A stretch of DNA of 64,000 nt, taken from the NCBI GenBank assembly GCA_001592805.2, contig CP051142.1:868001-932000 (forward strand), written 5' to 3'. The DNA comes from Peltaster fructicola. Taxonomy: Eukaryota; Ascomycota; Dothideomycetes. The position numbers and the translations under genes were made by a program. Shown one piece after another: positions 27,198 through 34,868 of the stretch; the stretch's first letter is position 1; each line of letters opens with the position of its first letter. The notes beneath the pieces were generated by a model. It searched no databases. It was not told where the DNA came from and saw only the letters and a list, made by a program, of their open reading frames with translations.

Positions 27198-27201
27198 TTA
27201 C
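27198..27201. repeat. Target-site duplication, left copy (TTAC)
   Basis: The 4-bp TTAC precedes the left LTR and is repeated at 34746-34749 after the right LTR. A 5-bp reading is possible if the LTR ends one base earlier, but the outer base then differs. Confidence 0.75.
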
Positions 27202-27299
27202 TGTTGAGGAAAGCACCTCGGTTGCCAAGCAACCAGTGCTACTACAAGTAGTTACCAGATAGACTCTCAAATTACATCATCTTTTCCACACCACAACAA
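27202..27299 (+). repeat. Left long terminal repeat, 98 bp
   Basis: It begins TGTTGAGG and ends CACAACAA, and is identical to the copy at 34648-34745. It contains a small perfect inverted repeat (GGTTGC, CAA, GCAACC at 27220-27234). At 98 bp it is very short for a coding-competent Ty3/gypsy element. Confidence 0.93.
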
Positions 27300-27444
27300 T
27301 TTGGTAGCTGAGAATCAACTCTCACCAGCGATTGCACCATCGCACCAGGACGTACGTCCACCAGCACTACTTCGTTGTACTGCACCAGACCACTGCGAAC
27401 ACGCCAATTCGCACCAGAACGATCCACCACGTCTACGACGCCCT

Positions 27445-29298
27445 ATGTCGCTGACGTCTGAACAAACCCTCCACCTCAGACAATTAGCAGCACTACTCCG
27501 AGTAGAAACTGCTACGGTACCGCCAACGATACGAGCACCTCTCACAGCTTTCGCCTCCTTGCACGAACGACTTGACGAGTTTCCCGACGATTGGGCAAAC
27601 GACGAACAAGCAAGAGCAAGAGCTATCGAACTGGGTACTCGTTACCTCAACCAGATCAACTCGCAACATCGGGAACTACGATCACCTTCTCGACAGCAGA
27701 ACCAGAACGACGACGAGCCCTCACCACCACGTCACCAGAGACGACGACGTACCACGCGTGACAACCTCGAAGCACTCAACAACCGTCGAGTGCGACAACC
27801 GAACTTGTCACCAGTCCGCACCATTGAGAGCGATCAAGGACAAGCAGGAACATCGTCTGGTGGTGGTTCTGGACACACTGAGAGCATACCTCGAGACACT
27901 CCTGCTAATCCGAACATGTCGGAACCACCAAATCCATTCAGTCGTGAGCAGATAGACGCATTGTCCGCACTTATTGCACAATCAGTCGCTGCCGCATTAC
28001 GCAGCAACGCAGCACGACCAAATCCTGCACCGAATGATCCACTCGACGTGGAACGAGACCAGTCAATGCGAGAACCCCTGGTTCCTTCCATCGACCGTCG
28101 TGCACCTTCATGGCGCGACGACGAAGTCGGATACTTCTGGCCTGACCATCCAGACTCAGAGGACACATTCACGAACAACAATGGACAGGTCATCATGCGA
28201 GACGTTCACCTCTTCATCGACCGTGTCAAAGACGCCACTGCTTGTCGAGGAGAACCATTCATGCGCGAAAGAATCCCTGCACTTCTTCGTGGTACCGCTG
28301 CACAATGGTACACCACAGCACTACCGTCGTTGGTCAAGGAAGGTTTGCGACATGCCTCTATTGACCAATGGTACACTACACTGCTCGAGCAATTCAAACG
28401 ACCACTCCTCGAGTCACTAGGTTCGCTACAACGTATGAGATACACGTTGACAGATGCTCGCGATCGAAAACCTATTGCAACCTATGTCTACACGATCGTG
28501 CGACACGCTCGCGACGCTGGCATGGACACTCCAGTACAACAACTGACTTACGCTTATCAAGGCATCGATGTTATGCTCCGAGACAGCGTCAGTCCGCCAC
28601 GAACTGGCACCTCCATAGCAGACTTCGTGAGAGAACTTGAGGAACGCCGTGAAAACTGGTCACAACTCGCCGATAGACAGCTCAGAACTAACGCCTACTA
28701 CTCGACAAAACGAGGTAATTATGCTCTTCCTTTCAGGCCTACTGGAGACCGTGCTGTGCCACCGTACAGGACCTACCCAGTGACCAGACCTCCAATGAAC
28801 TCCTCTGACAAGCCACAGTTTGCCGCAAGAACGTACCCTGCACTACAGAATCGACCAGCTCTGCCCGCGTCGCAAAATCGACTCGCTATTACACCAGCAG
28901 GAGAACCTGCTGCACGCCCTTACGTGAACGAGCGATACGACAGGCCTGGCTACAGACCAACCCTACGTCCATTCACGGCCAAAGTAAACTTCGTCGATGC
29001 ACAGCCAGCGGATGAGGACGAGGTGATGCAAGAGTACGATGAACAGGACTATGCTGAACAGGGCGAGGAGTACGAGGAACTTGGTTGCGAGAGTTTGGAA
29101 GGCGTCGAGACCAACGATGCAGTTCACGTCGATGCCCACTTCCTGAATACTGAGTCTACTGCTGTTACACCCAAGGATATGCATGAACCTGTGCGGAAGT
29201 ATGAGTGTCGTCACTGTCGAGCGAAGTTTGACACGAACAACCTCTTACACCGCCACCTACGCATCGAGCACAACGGTGGATCTTCAGCCCCAAAATAA
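27445..29298 (+). CDS. gag: Retrotransposon Gag with a C2H2 zinc finger
   Basis: The Gag-like protein has about 617 residues from the first ATG (27445); the frame is also open upstream. The N-terminal third is Arg/Gln/Pro-rich. The central part (YFWPDHPDSEDTF, RVKDATACRGEPFMRERIPALLRGTAAQWY, LEQFKRPLLESL) resembles the retrotransposon capsid fold. The C-terminus is acidic, then carries one finger of pattern C-x2-C-x12-H-x4-H (YECRHCRAKF to HLRIEH), a classic C2H2 finger rather than the usual CCHC knuckle. Its stop codon shares a base with the Pol start. The frame looks whole. Confidence 0.88.
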   Translation: MSLTSEQTLHLRQLAALLRVETATVPPTIRAPLTAFASLHERLDEFPDDWANDEQARARAIELGTRYLNQINSQHRELRSPSRQQNQNDDEPSPPRHQRRRRTTRDNLEALNNRRVRQPNLSPVRTIESDQGQAGTSSGGGSGHTESIPRDTPANPNMSEPPNPFSREQIDALSALIAQSVAAALRSNAARPNPAPNDPLDVERDQSMREPLVPSIDRRAPSWRDDEVGYFWPDHPDSEDTFTNNNGQVIMRDVHLFIDRVKDATACRGEPFMRERIPALLRGTAAQWYTTALPSLVKEGLRHASIDQWYTTLLEQFKRPLLESLGSLQRMRYTLTDARDRKPIATYVYTIVRHARDAGMDTPVQQLTYAYQGIDVMLRDSVSPPRTGTSIADFVRELEERRENWSQLADRQLRTNAYYSTKRGNYALPFRPTGDRAVPPYRTYPVTRPPMNSSDKPQFAARTYPALQNRPALPASQNRLAITPAGEPAARPYVNERYDRPGYRPTLRPFTAKVNFVDAQPADEDEVMQEYDEQDYAEQGEEYEELGCESLEGVETNDAVHVDAHFLNTESTAVTPKDMHEPVRKYECRHCRAKFDTNNLLHRHLRIEHNGGSSAPK

Positions 29299-32200
29299 TG
29301 GCTGCCAGATCCACAAAGCAAATGGATCCTCCGATAAACCATCCACGGTATCATTACGCAACGGTACATCTTTCGCTCAAGCATGACGCTCCACTACAAC
29401 CAGTATGCATCGATAGCGGAACCTCTACAACCTTGGTGGGCACGAACTTCTTAGAGCAGCAGGGAACATCCTTGGTGCACCTGGTACCAGCCTACCTCAA
29501 ATGGGTTCGAGGAGTCGGCGGTGCTACGTCCAGAGTCCTCGGAGCAATGACACTAAGCTTATACTTCCAGAATAATCTGACATCACACTGCTTTGCGCAC
29601 GTCGTCGAAAACCTCCGACCAAATCTACTCTTGGGAACGGACTGGCTGGTCACGACAAGCGCAACGCTCGACTTCCGAAGTTGTCAACTGGCCCTACCGC
29701 AGGGTGATGTGAGCATGTTCGTCGACAAACCGTTCGGTTCCAGAGCTCAGTCCGACATTCCGGTGCGAGCTAGAACTAGAACTGTACTTCAGCCAAACAA
29801 GATTACGGCGATTCCGATAGTCACTGGTCCAGATGTCCAGGGACTGCACCTATTTACGCCTACTCATCAACATTTACTGCATCAGATTCTAAACACAGAG
29901 AACAACACCATATACGCAGTGAATGAAAGCAATCTAACAACAGAAATACCTCAAGGTTTCCCCTTGGGACATCTCTCCACATCCTTTGACGGCTTGACAG
30001 CCACAGAAGCATATTCATGGCAAGACGCAAAGGCTGACAACATCTCGCCATCATGGAGCTACAACACCGAGCCAGTGGTGTATCAGGACACAAGCAATAA
30101 CCCCGAAGGACTACCTACACGTACAGGTCCCTTCGGCGCCACAATCTATGGTGATGATGACACTGCATTGCGAATCAGTGAACTTGTCGCATTGTTCCAA
30201 GACCTCTTTACAGACGACGGCAAGATTGCTACGATTCCAGAACAAGAATGGATGACAGTACCACTCGCCGGAGAGTGGAACACCGCAGACGCAAAGCTCG
30301 CTCACAAGGTGTATCCCATGGGTCCGAAGGACCGTGAACTTCTCGATGCTACTCACGACAAGCTACATCGTCAAGGCAGAATGGAGTGGACCAAGACACC
30401 TACACCCTTTGGCTTTCCCGTGTTCGTTGTTTGGCGGCTTGTTGATGGAGTACGCAAGGGCAGGGTAGTCGTAGACGTGAGAGGACTGAACAAGATCACA
30501 ATACCAGACTCCTATCCACTTCCACTACAGACAGACATCACCTCGGCCGTCGCCGGATGCTCCTACTTATCAACCGTCGACTGCACCAAGTTTTTCCACC
30601 AGCTGCCGGTCGCGAAGGAAGACCGACACAAGTTCACAGTGGTCACACATCGAGGACAGGAACAATACAATGTGGCACTTATGGGCTACAAAAATGCACC
30701 ACCTTACGCTCAACGCCAGATCGATAGACTGCTTCGAGAGTCTGGCATAGCTTTCGCGAAAGCTTTCATAGACGACATCATTGTGTTCAGCAAATCGTTG
30801 CAGGAACATCTTGGCCATCTACATTATCTCTTCTCTGTGCTACAGGACTACAAGATCACCTTGTCTGGCGACAAGTCCAATCTGGGATTCCCATCCTTGA
30901 ATTTGCTGGGACAAAGAGTGGACGCCTACGGTCTTCGTACCACCAGCGACAAGCTCGCAGCGATAAAGAACCTGTCATTTCCGTCAACTCTGAAGGATTT
31001 GGAGACTTACATCGGCATGACTGGTTGGCTACGGCATTATGTCCTACACTACGCTACTATTGTCGAACCACTACAGACCTACAAGACCAAGCGGTTGAAG
31101 TCTGCACCGCAAAGCAAGCAAGCCAGAACCCACTTCACGAATGCAGCCCGCATTGAAGCAACTCCCGAACTACTCGATGCTTTCAACGCGTTACAAGATG
31201 CATTTTCTGATCCAAAGACATTGGTACACTACGCTCGAGCTCGACCACTACACATCTTTACAGACAGTGCTAAACAAAGAGGATTTGGCGTTATAGTCGC
31301 ACATCTGTTAGGCGACCCTCAACCTCCTAAAGGTCTTACTGCGGACAACAAGTTACCGGCATCAACGAAGATACAACCCATCCTCTACCTCTCCAAGACA
31401 TTGTCTGGTGCAGAACGTCGGTACTGGCCGACTGAACTTGAGGTTGCGGCACTGGTATGGGCAATAAAGCGCGTCCGTTGGATGATCGAAGGATCCGAAC
31501 ACGTTACGACAATCTACACCGACCATGAAGCCATTGTCGGTCTGTCAAAGCAGACCTCTCTGAACTCTAGCGCAACAGACAAGCTCAATAACCGACTCAC
31601 TAGAGCTTCGCAATACATGTCGCAGTTCAATCTCAATGTCATCGTGGTACAAGGAAGGCTACATCTGTTCGCCGATGCTTTGTCGAGACTGCCAGCGAGG
31701 CAGACTACACCCGTTGACGATCATGACGACGTACTCGATGACCTAGTCTTCGCGCACTTGCTGACGACAGAGAACGGAACTTCTACTACGATCCTGGAGA
31801 TACAGCCCGATTTCAAGAAAGAATTACAGAAAGCATACGACAGCGATAAACACTTCAGCAGAATCAAGGCACGAGCGGAATCAATGGATGACAGCGAATC
31901 ACTAGGCTTTGCATGGCGCGACGGCTTGCTATGGAAAGACGGTCGTCTTTGCATTCCCAAAGCACTTGATGGGGACATCTTCGAGATTGCGCACGATCAA
32001 CAGTTTCATCCAGGCTTTCATCGCCTGTACGCCAGGATACGAGATCAGTACTATATTCGCAAGCTTGAAAAACGACTTAGACTCTATATCATGCATTGCG
32101 ATGAGTGCAAACAATTGCAAACTCGACGGCACAAACCCTTTGGCGATCTGCACCCAATACTCAGCCCAGCGATTCCATTTCACACGATCGCGATGGACTT

Positions 32201-33251
32201 TATTGTCGGACTGCCAGAATACGACGAGTACAACTGCTTGCTTACAGTTACATGCAAGTTCTCGAAGAGAACCATCCTCATACCTGGTCATGATCAACTT
32301 GATGCAACAGCCTGGGCACATAAGCTACTGGATGAACTGTTTAGCTGCGACTGGGGACTACCTAGTGCAATCATTTCCGACAGAGATCCAAAGTTCACAT
32401 CCAAGCTGTGGTCGACAATGTTCGATCGACTTGGCATCAAGCTTCTTCGCTCCACCGCATACCATCCTCAAACCGATGGACAGTCCGAACGAACGAACCA
32501 GACCGTCGAGATCGCGCTACGCTACTACCTTGCAAAGAACCCCGATCATGCACTGGGTTGGGCATATGTCTTGCCGCAGCTACGGTTCATGTTGAACAAC
32601 TCGGTCAGTCGAGGTACGGGAGTCTCGCCGAACGAGTTGTGTTACGGCTTCAGACCGCGTGAAGCGACTGATGTAAGCGTCGCCTTACCGGACGAGCACA
32701 AGGTACGACATCAAGAAGCAGAGGATAGCATAGCGTACGCACAAGCTGCTATGAAGATCCGCTATGACACACAGCACACACCATGGTCGCCACAAGTGGG
32801 TGATCGTGTGTACTTAAAGCTCGATAACTATCGTATACCGGGATTCAAGAATGACAAGTTGTCGCAGAAATACGCTGGTCCTTTCGCCATCGCGAATGCT
32901 GTGGGACGTCATGCATACAAGCTCTTACTGCCATCTACTTGGAAGATGCATCCGGTTGTATCAGTTACCGAACTCGAGCCAGCTGCAACCGGAGATGACC
33001 CATACGAACGACGAAGACATGATGATCGTCGTCAACTCAAGAAAAGCCTGAAGCTGCGAGAACTTGAGGACAACCAGCTGCTGCCTGAGCGTCTGTTGGA
33101 TCGACGTACACGAACGCTTCGAGGCAAACAAGTTGAGGAATTTCGCGTGAGACACGCCACGACTACAGCAGAGCACGACAAATGGGTCAATCGTCAGAAT
33201 CTGCCGGTGCAACTGCTACGAGAATATCTGAGAAACCATCCGGTAGGGTAG
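29298..33251 (+). CDS. pol: Retrotransposon Pol (protease, reverse transcriptase, RNase H, integrase, chromodomain-like tail)
   Basis: The protein has 1317 residues from ATG 29298, which overlaps the Gag stop as TAATG; termination-reinitiation is a plausible way to make it, by analogy with other elements that overlap a stop and start. An aspartic protease has DSG at residue 39. Reverse transcriptase runs from about residue 330, with VVDVRGLNK, and FIDDIIVFS as the catalytic YxDD-type motif. RNase H follows (IFTDSAKQRGFG; YWPTELEVAALVWAI). Integrase has an HHCC finger (from about 32005) and a DDE core with AMDFIVG, IISDRDPKF and HPQTDGQSERTNQ. A GPY/F-like module and a diverged chromodomain-like segment (PERLLDRRTR, HDKWVNRQNL, LLREYL) end the protein. 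The frame looks whole. Confidence 0.95.
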   Translation: MAARSTKQMDPPINHPRYHYATVHLSLKHDAPLQPVCIDSGTSTTLVGTNFLEQQGTSLVHLVPAYLKWVRGVGGATSRVLGAMTLSLYFQNNLTSHCFAHVVENLRPNLLLGTDWLVTTSATLDFRSCQLALPQGDVSMFVDKPFGSRAQSDIPVRARTRTVLQPNKITAIPIVTGPDVQGLHLFTPTHQHLLHQILNTENNTIYAVNESNLTTEIPQGFPLGHLSTSFDGLTATEAYSWQDAKADNISPSWSYNTEPVVYQDTSNNPEGLPTRTGPFGATIYGDDDTALRISELVALFQDLFTDDGKIATIPEQEWMTVPLAGEWNTADAKLAHKVYPMGPKDRELLDATHDKLHRQGRMEWTKTPTPFGFPVFVVWRLVDGVRKGRVVVDVRGLNKITIPDSYPLPLQTDITSAVAGCSYLSTVDCTKFFHQLPVAKEDRHKFTVVTHRGQEQYNVALMGYKNAPPYAQRQIDRLLRESGIAFAKAFIDDIIVFSKSLQEHLGHLHYLFSVLQDYKITLSGDKSNLGFPSLNLLGQRVDAYGLRTTSDKLAAIKNLSFPSTLKDLETYIGMTGWLRHYVLHYATIVEPLQTYKTKRLKSAPQSKQARTHFTNAARIEATPELLDAFNALQDAFSDPKTLVHYARARPLHIFTDSAKQRGFGVIVAHLLGDPQPPKGLTADNKLPASTKIQPILYLSKTLSGAERRYWPTELEVAALVWAIKRVRWMIEGSEHVTTIYTDHEAIVGLSKQTSLNSSATDKLNNRLTRASQYMSQFNLNVIVVQGRLHLFADALSRLPARQTTPVDDHDDVLDDLVFAHLLTTENGTSTTILEIQPDFKKELQKAYDSDKHFSRIKARAESMDDSESLGFAWRDGLLWKDGRLCIPKALDGDIFEIAHDQQFHPGFHRLYARIRDQYYIRKLEKRLRLYIMHCDECKQLQTRRHKPFGDLHPILSPAIPFHTIAMDFIVGLPEYDEYNCLLTVTCKFSKRTILIPGHDQLDATAWAHKLLDELFSCDWGLPSAIISDRDPKFTSKLWSTMFDRLGIKLLRSTAYHPQTDGQSERTNQTVEIALRYYLAKNPDHALGWAYVLPQLRFMLNNSVSRGTGVSPNELCYGFRPREATDVSVALPDEHKVRHQEAEDSIAYAQAAMKIRYDTQHTPWSPQVGDRVYLKLDNYRIPGFKNDKLSQKYAGPFAIANAVGRHAYKLLLPSTWKMHPVVSVTELEPAATGDDPYERRRHDDRRQLKKSLKLRELEDNQLLPERLLDRRTRTLRGKQVEEFRVRHATTTAEHDKWVNRQNLPVQLLREYLRNHPVG

Positions 33252-33398
33252 ATTCACTTCTACTCACGTCATGTGTTTGCACATGCTGAGAAATGAGAGC
33301 GCGACACCTTACTTTTCGCATTCTGTCGCAACTTGCAGCATTACAACTACTTCTTCATTACATCTGCGCTACAACAAGCAAGCTCTACAACGACTACA

Positions 33399-34466
33399 AT
33401 GGATACAGAGCAGAACAACGACGCTGCATCAATGCAACCAGCAAATACAGAGCAGCACAATGAGGCACCGAGCATGCCAAAAGAAGTACCTCGTGTGACG
33501 TTCTTTCCAGAGGAATTCTTGGACACTCTCTATGGCAAGAAAATCTACGGTCCGCGTACTAAAGCACAACAGGACACCATGGACTTCCTCGCTGATCCGG
33601 AAACTGCCAAGATACCACTCAACTTGGGTAACAAGGACATGAAGAACAAGAAGGACAAGAAGGACAACAACGATGACGGGGTTGACAAGGCTGTTACCAA
33701 GAACACCTTGGATACTCCAAAGGACGACGAGGATGACTATGATGGCTTTGTGTTCAACCTTGACACCGACACACTGAACAAATTGACGAGCAACGCAGAG
33801 GACAAGGCGAACAAGTCGAAGAACAAGCACAACGACTTGGACGATATACCAGCATCAACCAGAGCGCTCAAAAACAAGAGGGCTGCCGCTCGGCAGCGAC
33901 GAACTTTGACGTCCAGACTCATCGAAAGACACCAGTTGATCTTGAACAACATGGCTGTCCTACCACGCGATGCGACTCAAGACTACCGCCCTGAGAACGT
34001 GGACTACCAACGGGCATTCAAGTTACAGGACCAGGTCTTGAGTGCAGTACAGGGCAACCAGAGACTCGTCAAGAGCCTCCAGAAGAACGCTCCGAAGTGG
34101 AACGAAGACAACGTCGGCGAGTACACTGTCAGCATTGCTACTTTTGCTGGCTCTATCGGCCTGCGCACCACACAGAGCTCGTCTGCTGCTGCAGACGACG
34201 TCGGACCAGTGTTGGCACCAGCTACAATCGTGCCCTCGGCTGCCACTCAAGCACTTGACGCACTACTGACTGGTTATACACCATCTTCTGCAACGTTCGC
34301 CGCACCGGTTCTTCGACGACCACCACCACCGGTCATGGTTGACAAGATGTCTTCACCAATTCCAGAGCCGGTGAAAAGAGAACACCGTCCGTGGACAAGA
34401 ACTTGCCACCACTGCCAGAGGAAGCCACCTCTGCACCACCTCCGGACTACGCTGTTCTTGCTGTGA
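33399..34466 (+). CDS. Extra open frame of the retrotransposon (ORF3), unknown function
   Basis: This frame lies between Pol and the right LTR and encodes about 355 residues from its first ATG. It is very hydrophilic: an N-terminal Asn/Gln/Glu stretch, PRVTFFPEEFLDTLYG, then Lys/Asp-rich segments (KNKKDKKDNNDD), a basic block (KNKRAAARQRRTLTSRL) and a Pro/Ala-rich end. No known domain is recognised and there is no signal peptide. Ty3/gypsy elements sometimes carry an extra ORF in this position, including envelope-like ones. The composition here does not establish an envelope function. Confidence 0.6.
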   Translation: MDTEQNNDAASMQPANTEQHNEAPSMPKEVPRVTFFPEEFLDTLYGKKIYGPRTKAQQDTMDFLADPETAKIPLNLGNKDMKNKKDKKDNNDDGVDKAVTKNTLDTPKDDEDDYDGFVFNLDTDTLNKLTSNAEDKANKSKNKHNDLDDIPASTRALKNKRAAARQRRTLTSRLIERHQLILNNMAVLPRDATQDYRPENVDYQRAFKLQDQVLSAVQGNQRLVKSLQKNAPKWNEDNVGEYTVSIATFAGSIGLRTTQSSSAAADDVGPVLAPATIVPSAATQALDALLTGYTPSSATFAAPVLRRPPPPVMVDKMSSPIPEPVKREHRPWTRTCHHCQRKPPLHHLRTTLFLL

Positions 34467-34576
34467 CACTCGCGGGTGTCATCATCGGCGTCCTGCTCTC
34501 ACTCTTGTTCCTCTTCATCATCTGGATGATTCCAACCAAGCACGAGGTTGCTCTGATTGACGGCACTGACGACTGA
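34391..34576 (+). other. Short open frame with one strong transmembrane segment, within the retrotransposon
   Basis: A 62-codon open stretch lies at the 3' end of the internal region. It has a Pro-rich lead (PPLPEEATSAPPPDY), one long hydrophobic span (AVLAVTLAGVIIGVLLSLLF and onward) and a short charged tail. It partly overlaps ORF3 in another frame. A membrane segment at this place recalls envelope-like ORFs of some Ty3 relatives, but that is inference. Confidence 0.45.
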
Positions 34577-34622
34577 TGGGTACCAGCAACAACTACGACA
34601 TCTCTATGCACTCGAGGACGAG

Positions 34623-34642
34623 CGCCCTTTTTCGAAAGGGCG
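34623..34642 (+). other. Perfect 8-bp hairpin with TTCG loop beside the right LTR
   Basis: CGCCCTTT and AAAGGGCG pair perfectly around a TTCG tetraloop, ending 5 bp before the right LTR. The 3' arm overlaps the purine-rich tract expected to prime plus-strand synthesis. Confidence 0.75.
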
Positions 34643-34647
34643 GCAGA

Positions 34648-34745
34648 TGTTGAGGAAAGCACCTCGGTTGCCAAGCAACCAGTGCTACTACAAGTAGTTA
34701 CCAGATAGACTCTCAAATTACATCATCTTTTCCACACCACAACAA
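34648..34745 (+). repeat. Right long terminal repeat, 98 bp
   Basis: It is identical at every base to the left LTR at 27202-27299, and is followed by the TTAC target-site copy. Confidence 0.93.
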
Positions 34746-34749
34746 TTAC
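34746..34749. repeat. Target-site duplication, right copy (TTAC)
   Basis: This matches the 4 bp at 27198-27201. Confidence 0.75.
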
Positions 34750-34868
34750 TCGTACACTGTTCCCTCACATTTCCGTCACTTCCATGAAATCTCCTTCACC
34801 TTTGATCACTGCTCGAACATCAATAGCAACACTTAGAGCCAGAGCACTCTCGCCCAGCATCAAGCACA

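What the first reader, a model, noticed from the sequence alone, without database searches (positions are those of the whole stretch)
33399..34576. Third coding region after Pol, next to a strong transmembrane segment
Fungal chromoviruses normally end after integrase. Here about 1.2 kb more holds a 355-codon hydrophilic frame of no known family and a short frame with one long hydrophobic span. Position and membrane segment recall envelope-like ORFs of some Ty3 relatives, but there is no signal peptide, so it may be a new accessory protein.
Basis: partly seen in the sequence, partly recalled or inferred. Interest (0 to 1): 0.75.

Follow-up and report, generated by a model that had tools for sequence, protein, structure and literature searches.

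The report
Fungal retrotransposon with third membrane gene
A single, recently inserted jumping gene in a fungus carries, after its two usual genes, a third one for a protein of unknown family that seems to end in a membrane anchor, hinting that some fungal jumping genes may use cell membranes.

Summary
The host is almost certainly Peltaster fructicola (18,987,130 bases in 5 contigs; Pol returned as AMS68_005755). The element (27202-34744) has two identical 97-nt LTRs, intact gag and Ty3-type pol frames, then a long frame (33399-34466) and a hydrophobic frame ending at 34576. The searches found one copy in the genome.

The two reported frames look like one gene: the element's codon signature follows ORF3 to about 34340, then the hydrophobic frame to its stop. 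No slippery heptamer or credible intron was seen, so the gene is probably broken in this copy. Its product would be charged, with no cysteine, one sequon, no signal peptide and one hydrophobic span near the C-terminus: more like a tail-anchored cytosolic accessory protein than an envelope glycoprotein.

No relative of ORF3 was found and the DNA of Pol relatives was out of reach, so selection could not be tested. A spliced mRNA for ORF3 is possible but unproven. The element contradicts the published statement that this genome holds no full-length transposable element (PMC7181583).

The parts
27202..34744 (+). Whole LTR retrotransposon (Ty3/gypsy, chromovirus-like)
   Evidence: Identical LTRs, gag and pol frames, Pol families; one copy found in the genome
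27202..27298 (+). 5' LTR, 97 nt, TGTTG...CAACA
   Evidence: 100% identical to the 3' LTR; the genome search gave exactly these 2 LTR matches
27198..27201 (+). Left TTAC of a possible target-site duplication (right TTAC at 34746-34749; as a 5-nt repeat CTTAC/ATTAC it matches in 4 of 5)
   Evidence: Flanks printed
27302..27309 (+). Possible primer-binding site TGGTAGCT just after the 5' LTR
   Evidence: Reading; no tRNA tested
27352..27357 (+). Candidate splice donor GTACGT in the leader (prediction)
   Evidence: Only one of GTAAGT/GTATGT/GTGAGT/GTACGT on the + strand of the element; 6.5% of 3000 simulations have one in the leader
27445..29298 (+). gag, 617 codons, with a C2H2-type zinc finger near its end
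   Evidence: First ATG after the LTR; similar to the Gag part of relatives
29298..33251 (+). pol, 1317 codons: RT, RNase H, integrase, SH3 and a diverged chromodomain-like end; its ATG overlaps the gag stop
33336..33338 (+). Candidate splice acceptor CAG (prediction)
   Evidence: Only YAG between pol and ORF3; 5.3% of simulations have at most one
33399..34466 (+). ORF3, 355 codons; coding signal in this frame to about 34340
34343..34576 (+). Hydrophobic frame, read as the displaced C-terminal part of ORF3: membrane span and short tail
34634..34647 (+). Purine-rich stretch before the 3' LTR (possible polypurine tract)
   Evidence: by reading
34648..34744 (+). 3' LTR, 97 nt

Best explanation
The region is the third gene of a single-copy, recently inserted chromovirus-like (Ty3/gypsy) element in Peltaster fructicola. 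ORF3 and the hydrophobic frame are two parts of one gene whose frame is interrupted between about 34343 and 34391 in this copy or this assembly. The gene's product is a membrane-anchored accessory protein rather than an envelope: a cytosolic, charged, probably helical body, a proline-rich linker, one C-terminal membrane span and a short tail (tail-anchored topology). Most likely job (inferred): to hold Gag particles or the element's RNA at an internal or nuclear membrane during assembly or nuclear entry. It may be made from a spliced mRNA (27352 to 33338), as retroviral env is. Shown here: the element's anatomy, one copy found, the codon signal in both frames, the hydrophobic span, the absence of signal peptide and cysteines. 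Inferred: topology, splicing, binding to particles, the place of action.
For: 389-codon open run, 0 of 2000 simulations reached 377. Codon score trained on gag and pol follows ORF3, then the hydrophobic frame; a two-frame path with a switch near 34346 scores 38.96 bits to 34573 against 13.1 for ORF3's frame alone to its own stop, the paths differing in length. Hydrophobic maximum 2.89, ORF3 maximum 1.2. 0 Cys, 1 sequon, 41 K+R and 45 D+E in 314 codons. Helices in a weak model. Identical LTRs and one copy found. Donor in the leader, single acceptor, no ATG between acceptor and ORF3's ATG.
Against: No relative of ORF3 found, so conservation is untested. The frame is broken, so this copy may make no anchored protein. 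In windows from about 33770 to 33970 the contrast fades: the hydrophobic frame's register scores about as high as ORF3's, once slightly higher (0.17 against 0.14). The splice odds are weak (6.5%, 13.4%, 5.3%) and the idea is post hoc. The Gag link is inconclusive. The model has mean pLDDT 43.8. No experiment shows topology.
Confidence: 0.5

Rival explanations
1. An envelope-like fusion protein that gives the element an extracellular phase.
For: Position after pol, a C-terminal membrane span, helices, a possible spliced mRNA, one pristine copy without relics found, as recent arrival would give.
Against: No signal peptide, no cysteine, one sequon, no Pfam or PDB match to a viral glycoprotein. 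PMC5408684 section 3.2 warns that membrane spans or coiled coils alone do not make an env.
Confidence: 0.1
2. A captured gene or passenger with no role in the element's cycle.
For: No family, no relative found; extra ORFs of unlike origin are known in other LTR elements (PMC5408684, abstract).
Against: No source gene in this genome (1 match, itself) or in the protein search; codon usage like gag and pol.
Confidence: 0.15
3. A decaying remnant: once a gene, now without function, in the space between pol and the LTR.
For: Frame interrupted in the only copy found.
Against: 314 codons before the break and about 77 after the stop at 34340 are open with element-like codon usage. The LTRs are identical, so the insertion is young.
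Confidence: 0.12
4. Two forms by design: a soluble ORF3 and an anchored form made by frameshifting or an optional intron.
For: The two frames overlap; the public annotation (P0001) draws an intron that joins them, from a BRAKER pipeline that used RNA-seq (PMC7181583).
Against: No X XXY YYZ heptamer, not even half of one, in the overlap; 16 candidate GT-AG pairs, none with a strong donor. The same annotation also cuts pieces out of the intact gag frame. Reverse transcription would tend to lose an intron (general knowledge).
Confidence: 0.1

Closest known systems
Fungal chromoviruses (Ty3/gypsy, Metaviridae; survey PMC2864245, passages seen)
   Same: LTRs, Gag, protease-RT-RNase H-integrase order, Tf2-type SH3 and a chromodomain-like C-terminus. 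The survey says most full-length elements have one or two ORFs; its Fig. 3 legend lists an additional ORF of unknown function in at least one element drawn (fungal elements, or the spikemoss one).
   Different: A third gene with a membrane span; very short LTRs; the chromodomain gives no Pfam match.
LTR elements of bdelloid rotifers with diverse ORF3s (PMC5408684, abstract and section 3.2 read)
   Same: A third ORF after pol, often without relatives and with membrane spans.
   Different: Animal hosts; those described there have two spans with cysteines, a paramyxovirus-like fusion protein, or enzymes. This one has one C-terminal span and no cysteine.
Foamy virus Env leader peptide that binds Gag (PMC7828637, passages seen)
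   Same: Works-like model: a membrane protein meets the capsid on its cytosolic side. The review suggests that ancient Ty3/gypsy Gag may have contacted Env-like membrane proteins.
   Different: There the contact is the short N-terminal leader of a glycoprotein; here a long body with the anchor at the C-terminus. No sequence relation was tested or found, and Gag binding is not shown.
Env-like genes of plant Athila-type elements (mentioned in PMC2864245, passage seen) and insect gypsy Env (recalled)
   Same: Third ORF after pol with a membrane span.
   Different: No signal peptide, no cysteine; no Pfam match. No direct alignment to those proteins was made.

Membership tests
Ty3/gypsy LTR retrotransposon (Metaviridae) | LTR pair around gag and pol, with RT and RNase H before integrase | tested here: met
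   Ty3 Gag-Pol chain 7q5b at E 5.2e-81
Chromovirus | Chromodomain at the C-terminus of integrase | tested here: inconclusive
   C-terminus aligns with that of relatives that carry PF00385, but no Pfam Chromo match at E<=1
Retroviral-type Env glycoprotein | Signal peptide at the N-terminus | tested here: not met
   No 19-residue window above 1.2 in ORF3's frame
Retroviral-type Env glycoprotein | Cysteine-rich, glycosylated ectodomain | tested here: not met
   0 Cys and 1 sequon in 314 codons; 0 Cys and no sequon in the hydrophobic frame
Retroviral-type Env glycoprotein | C-terminal membrane anchor | tested here: met
   Hydrophobic maximum 2.89, but in another frame than ORF3
Retroviral-type Env glycoprotein | Spliced subgenomic mRNA | tested here: inconclusive
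   Candidate sites only; no RNA data at hand
Tail-anchored membrane protein | One span close to the C-terminus, no signal peptide | tested here: inconclusive
   Met if the two frames give one protein; that is inferred
Tail-anchored membrane protein | Post-translational insertion with the N-terminus in the cytosol | not testable with these tools
   Needs an experiment
Gag-related protein | Similarity to the Gag of the same element or family | tested here: inconclusive
   ORF3 223-242 against Gag 212-231: 9 of 20 identical, E 0.002 for one pair, 0 of 1000 shuffles as high. Full family motif not significant (943 of 10000 shuffles), chosen core 47 of 10000. Gag profile score negative
Captured host gene | A related gene elsewhere in the host | tested here: not met
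   1 match in the genome, the element itself

The most novel reading that the evidence does not exclude
A fungal retrotransposon lineage that has acquired a spliced third gene for a membrane-anchored protein that docks its own capsids, and that moves between fungi: a retrovirus-like life style arising in fungi without capture of a viral envelope.
Probability: 0.1. Interest if true: 0.85.

Novelty: new variant of a known kind. Interest (0 to 1): 0.5.

Why it matters
My searches (titles and abstract starts, few papers opened) showed no fungal LTR element described with a membrane-anchored third gene. If ORF3 is conserved in relatives, it would mean that some fungal chromoviruses use membranes in their cycle, and it would give a testable case of how a retrotransposon gains a membrane protein before an envelope. 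Separately, the element bears on a published claim: PMC7181583 reports no full-length transposable element in P. fructicola and suggests it may be the first fungus without complete ones, yet this genome holds one with identical LTRs and open gag and pol. One copy without solo LTRs or relics found also suggests recent arrival.

Tried and rejected
Homologues: ORF3 against the protein collection found nothing at E<=1 (7869 candidates, perhaps crowded by low-complexity words). Residues 148-262 alone gave 178 candidates and nothing at E<=10. In viral contigs ORF3 (13 stretches matched a pattern, none a relative), Pol (no stretch matched) and the Pol alignment (17 stretches, none a relative) gave nothing. 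Genome contigs with the Pol alignment gave 12 loci from 32 matched stretches, 25-33% identical in the best segment, in bacterial or archaeal assemblies; they look like contamination and their flanks were not examined. Of the 120 listed proteins only P0001, this element itself, has a membrane span in its last 300 residues; a separate ORF3 would not show there.

bZIP idea: residues 158-168 recall a bZIP basic region (recalled motif), but the leucines are out of register by reading, and Pfam gave no match. Zinc-finger idea: the last part of ORF3's own frame gave weak hits to Gag zinc fingers of relatives (E 1.2 and 1.9); rejected because the coding signal there lies in the other frame. Gag mimicry: inconclusive. 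In the motif scan four other open frames of the window besides gag, out of 160, outscore ORF3, and so do at least the six best-scoring of 111 Pol parts of relatives. Slippery site and short intron: none convincing. Fold search: not run, since the model's mean pLDDT is 43.8. No tRNA gene in the window (bacterial settings).

Full report
What is there. The window lies in a genome of 18,987,130 bases in 5 contigs. This fits the five-chromosome 18.99 Mb assembly of Peltaster fructicola LNHT1506 in PMC7181583 (passages seen), and the Pol search returned AMS68_005755 of that species at 100% identity. Two identical 97-nt LTRs lie at 27202-27298 and 34648-34744. Between them are a 617-codon gag from 27445, a 1317-codon pol from 29298 whose ATG overlaps the gag stop, and the region in question. 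Pol matches RT, RNase H, integrase and SH3_Tf2-1 families and the Ty3 Gag-Pol chain in the PDB at E 5.2e-81. Its C-terminus aligns with the chromodomain region of relatives but gives no Pfam Chromo match. Identity to twelve Pol relatives (P0002-P0013) is 44-61%.

One copy found. Searches of the genome gave 1 match for ORF3, 1 for Pol protein, 1 for pol DNA, 1 for the ORF3-region DNA, 1 for Gag, exactly 2 for the LTR, 1 for the integrase core family and 2 adjoining pieces at one place for RT_RNaseH_2. RVT_1 gave 4 matches at 3 places: this element, a LINE-like remnant with stops on C2, and a 926-residue open frame on C4 that I take for telomerase (both named by eye). The tool calls its repeat counts lower bounds. 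So no solo LTR and no relic of this family was seen. With 0 differences in 97 nt the insertion is young, though 97 nt cannot date it closely. One pristine copy is what recent arrival by crossing or horizontal transfer would leave; this is inference. [quoted passage not shown] The window contradicts that.

ORF3 and the hydrophobic frame are one gene. The open run around ORF3 is 389 codons; simulated sequences of the same length and dinucleotide make-up reached at most 310 (0 of 2000 reached 377). A codon log-odds score trained on gag and pol is positive in ORF3's frame in windows from about 33330 to 34410 and negative after that; the hydrophobic frame is positive from the window at 34330 to its stop. 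From about 33770 to 33970 the two registers score about alike, so the contrast is not equal throughout. The best change point is 34346, with scores within about 2 bits to 34394. The hydrophobic frame is closed upstream by a stop at 34340, so the change lies inside the overlap. I looked for reasons. There is no X XXY YYZ heptamer in ORF3's frame there, not even a half one. Sixteen GT-AG pairs would join the frames, none with a strong donor, and there is one branch-like CTGAC at 34266. The public annotation draws an intron there, but it also cuts pieces out of the intact gag frame, so I give it little weight, although the pipeline used RNA-seq. A small insertion or deletion in this copy is the simplest reading; an assembly slip is less likely because the assembly was polished with about 256x Illumina reads.

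What the protein would be. The 314 codons to 34340 encode 41 K+R and 45 D+E, no cysteine and one sequon. No segment is hydrophobic enough for a signal peptide. The hydrophobic frame gives a span with a maximum of 2.89 and, by reading, a tail of about 13 residues. An AlphaFold model from the single sequence is poor (mean pLDDT 43.8) but shows helices at 152-185, 201-230 and 236-258. This is the layout of a tail-anchored protein with a cytosolic body rather than of an envelope glycoprotein.

Expression. Pol ends at 33251 and ORF3 begins at 33399, with three ATGs in between (33271, 33283, 33293). Retroviruses solve this with a spliced env mRNA (general knowledge). In this element the only donor among GTAAGT, GTATGT, GTGAGT and GTACGT is GTACGT at 27352, in the leader before gag; weaker donors (GTACGA, GTATGA, GTAAGC, GTACGC) occur inside gag and pol. 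The only YAG between pol and ORF3 is at 33336-33338, behind a pyrimidine-rich run (by reading) and after the last of the three ATGs. GTACGT is among the donors enriched in intron-like patterns of the flanking host DNA (5 seen, 1.3 expected; GTATGT 8 against 1.45). The odds are not strong: 6.5% of 3000 simulations put such a donor in the leader, 13.4% have at most one in the element, and 5.3% have at most one YAG in that stretch. The idea came after seeing the sites, so I hold it as a prediction for RNA-seq.

A possible link to Gag. ORF3 residues 223-242 resemble Gag residues 212-231, just before the capsid region (placement recalled): 9 of 20 identical, E 0.002 for the single comparison, and no shuffle of 1000 as good. 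The family's conserved core in that stretch is (V/I)G(F/Y)FDP. ORF3 lacks its second half: the full motif is reached by 943 of 10000 shuffles, the chosen core by 47 of 10000, and four other open frames of the window besides gag outscore ORF3. A profile of the family's Gag gives ORF3 a negative score. I count this as unproven.

No relatives of ORF3 were found.

Literature. PMC2864245 (passages) says most full-length fungal Gypsy elements have one or two ORFs; its Fig. 3 legend lists an additional ORF of unknown function among the elements drawn, without saying in the legend which. PMC3248453 (passages) says LTR elements usually have two ORFs. PMC5408684 (abstract and section 3.2) describes rotifer elements with diverse ORF3s and warns against calling any ORF3 with a membrane span an env. 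PMC7828637 (passages) discusses Gag-Env contacts in foamy viruses. PMC2774666 (passages) says that an LTR element recruiting a third-ORF env could become a retrovirus. Searches for a fungal element with a membrane-bearing third ORF listed none that I recognised from titles and abstract starts; most listed papers were not opened.

Verdict. The two frames are best read as one broken gene. The product is more likely a tail-anchored accessory protein than an envelope. The function is inferred.

Noticed in passing
27202-34744: The published genome paper (PMC7181583) reports no full-length transposable element in P. fructicola; this element has identical LTRs and open gag and pol.
   Followed up: yes
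27445-34576: The public gene model AMS68_005755 (P0001, 2248 aa) fuses gag, pol, ORF3 and the hydrophobic frame through drawn introns that also cut into the intact gag frame.
   Followed up: partly
34593-34654: The end of the internal region and the start of the 3' LTR fold into a long stem with an 8-bp hairpin (z -3.21, 1 of 200 shuffles as stable), over the purine-rich stretch.
   Followed up: partly
27250-27257 and 27302-27309: An 8-nt stretch of the LTR can pair with the putative primer-binding site (one G-U pair), which recalls self-priming as in Tf1 (recalled); by reading only.
   Followed up: no
29200-29271: Gag ends in a C2H2-type zinc finger (Pfam E 0.005-0.03, below cut-off) instead of the usual CCHC knuckle; some relatives seem to have the same.
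   Followed up: no
34745-34784: The element ends only about 40 bases before the first ATG of a 439-codon host open frame, so it may sit in a promoter region.
   Followed up: no
L020 (G000 C2:431605-432365): A LINE-like remnant with a stop in each RT piece; part of the fetched locus reads N.
   Followed up: partly
L007-L018: Twelve Ty3-like Pol loci in bacterial or archaeal assemblies, probably eukaryotic contamination.
   Followed up: no
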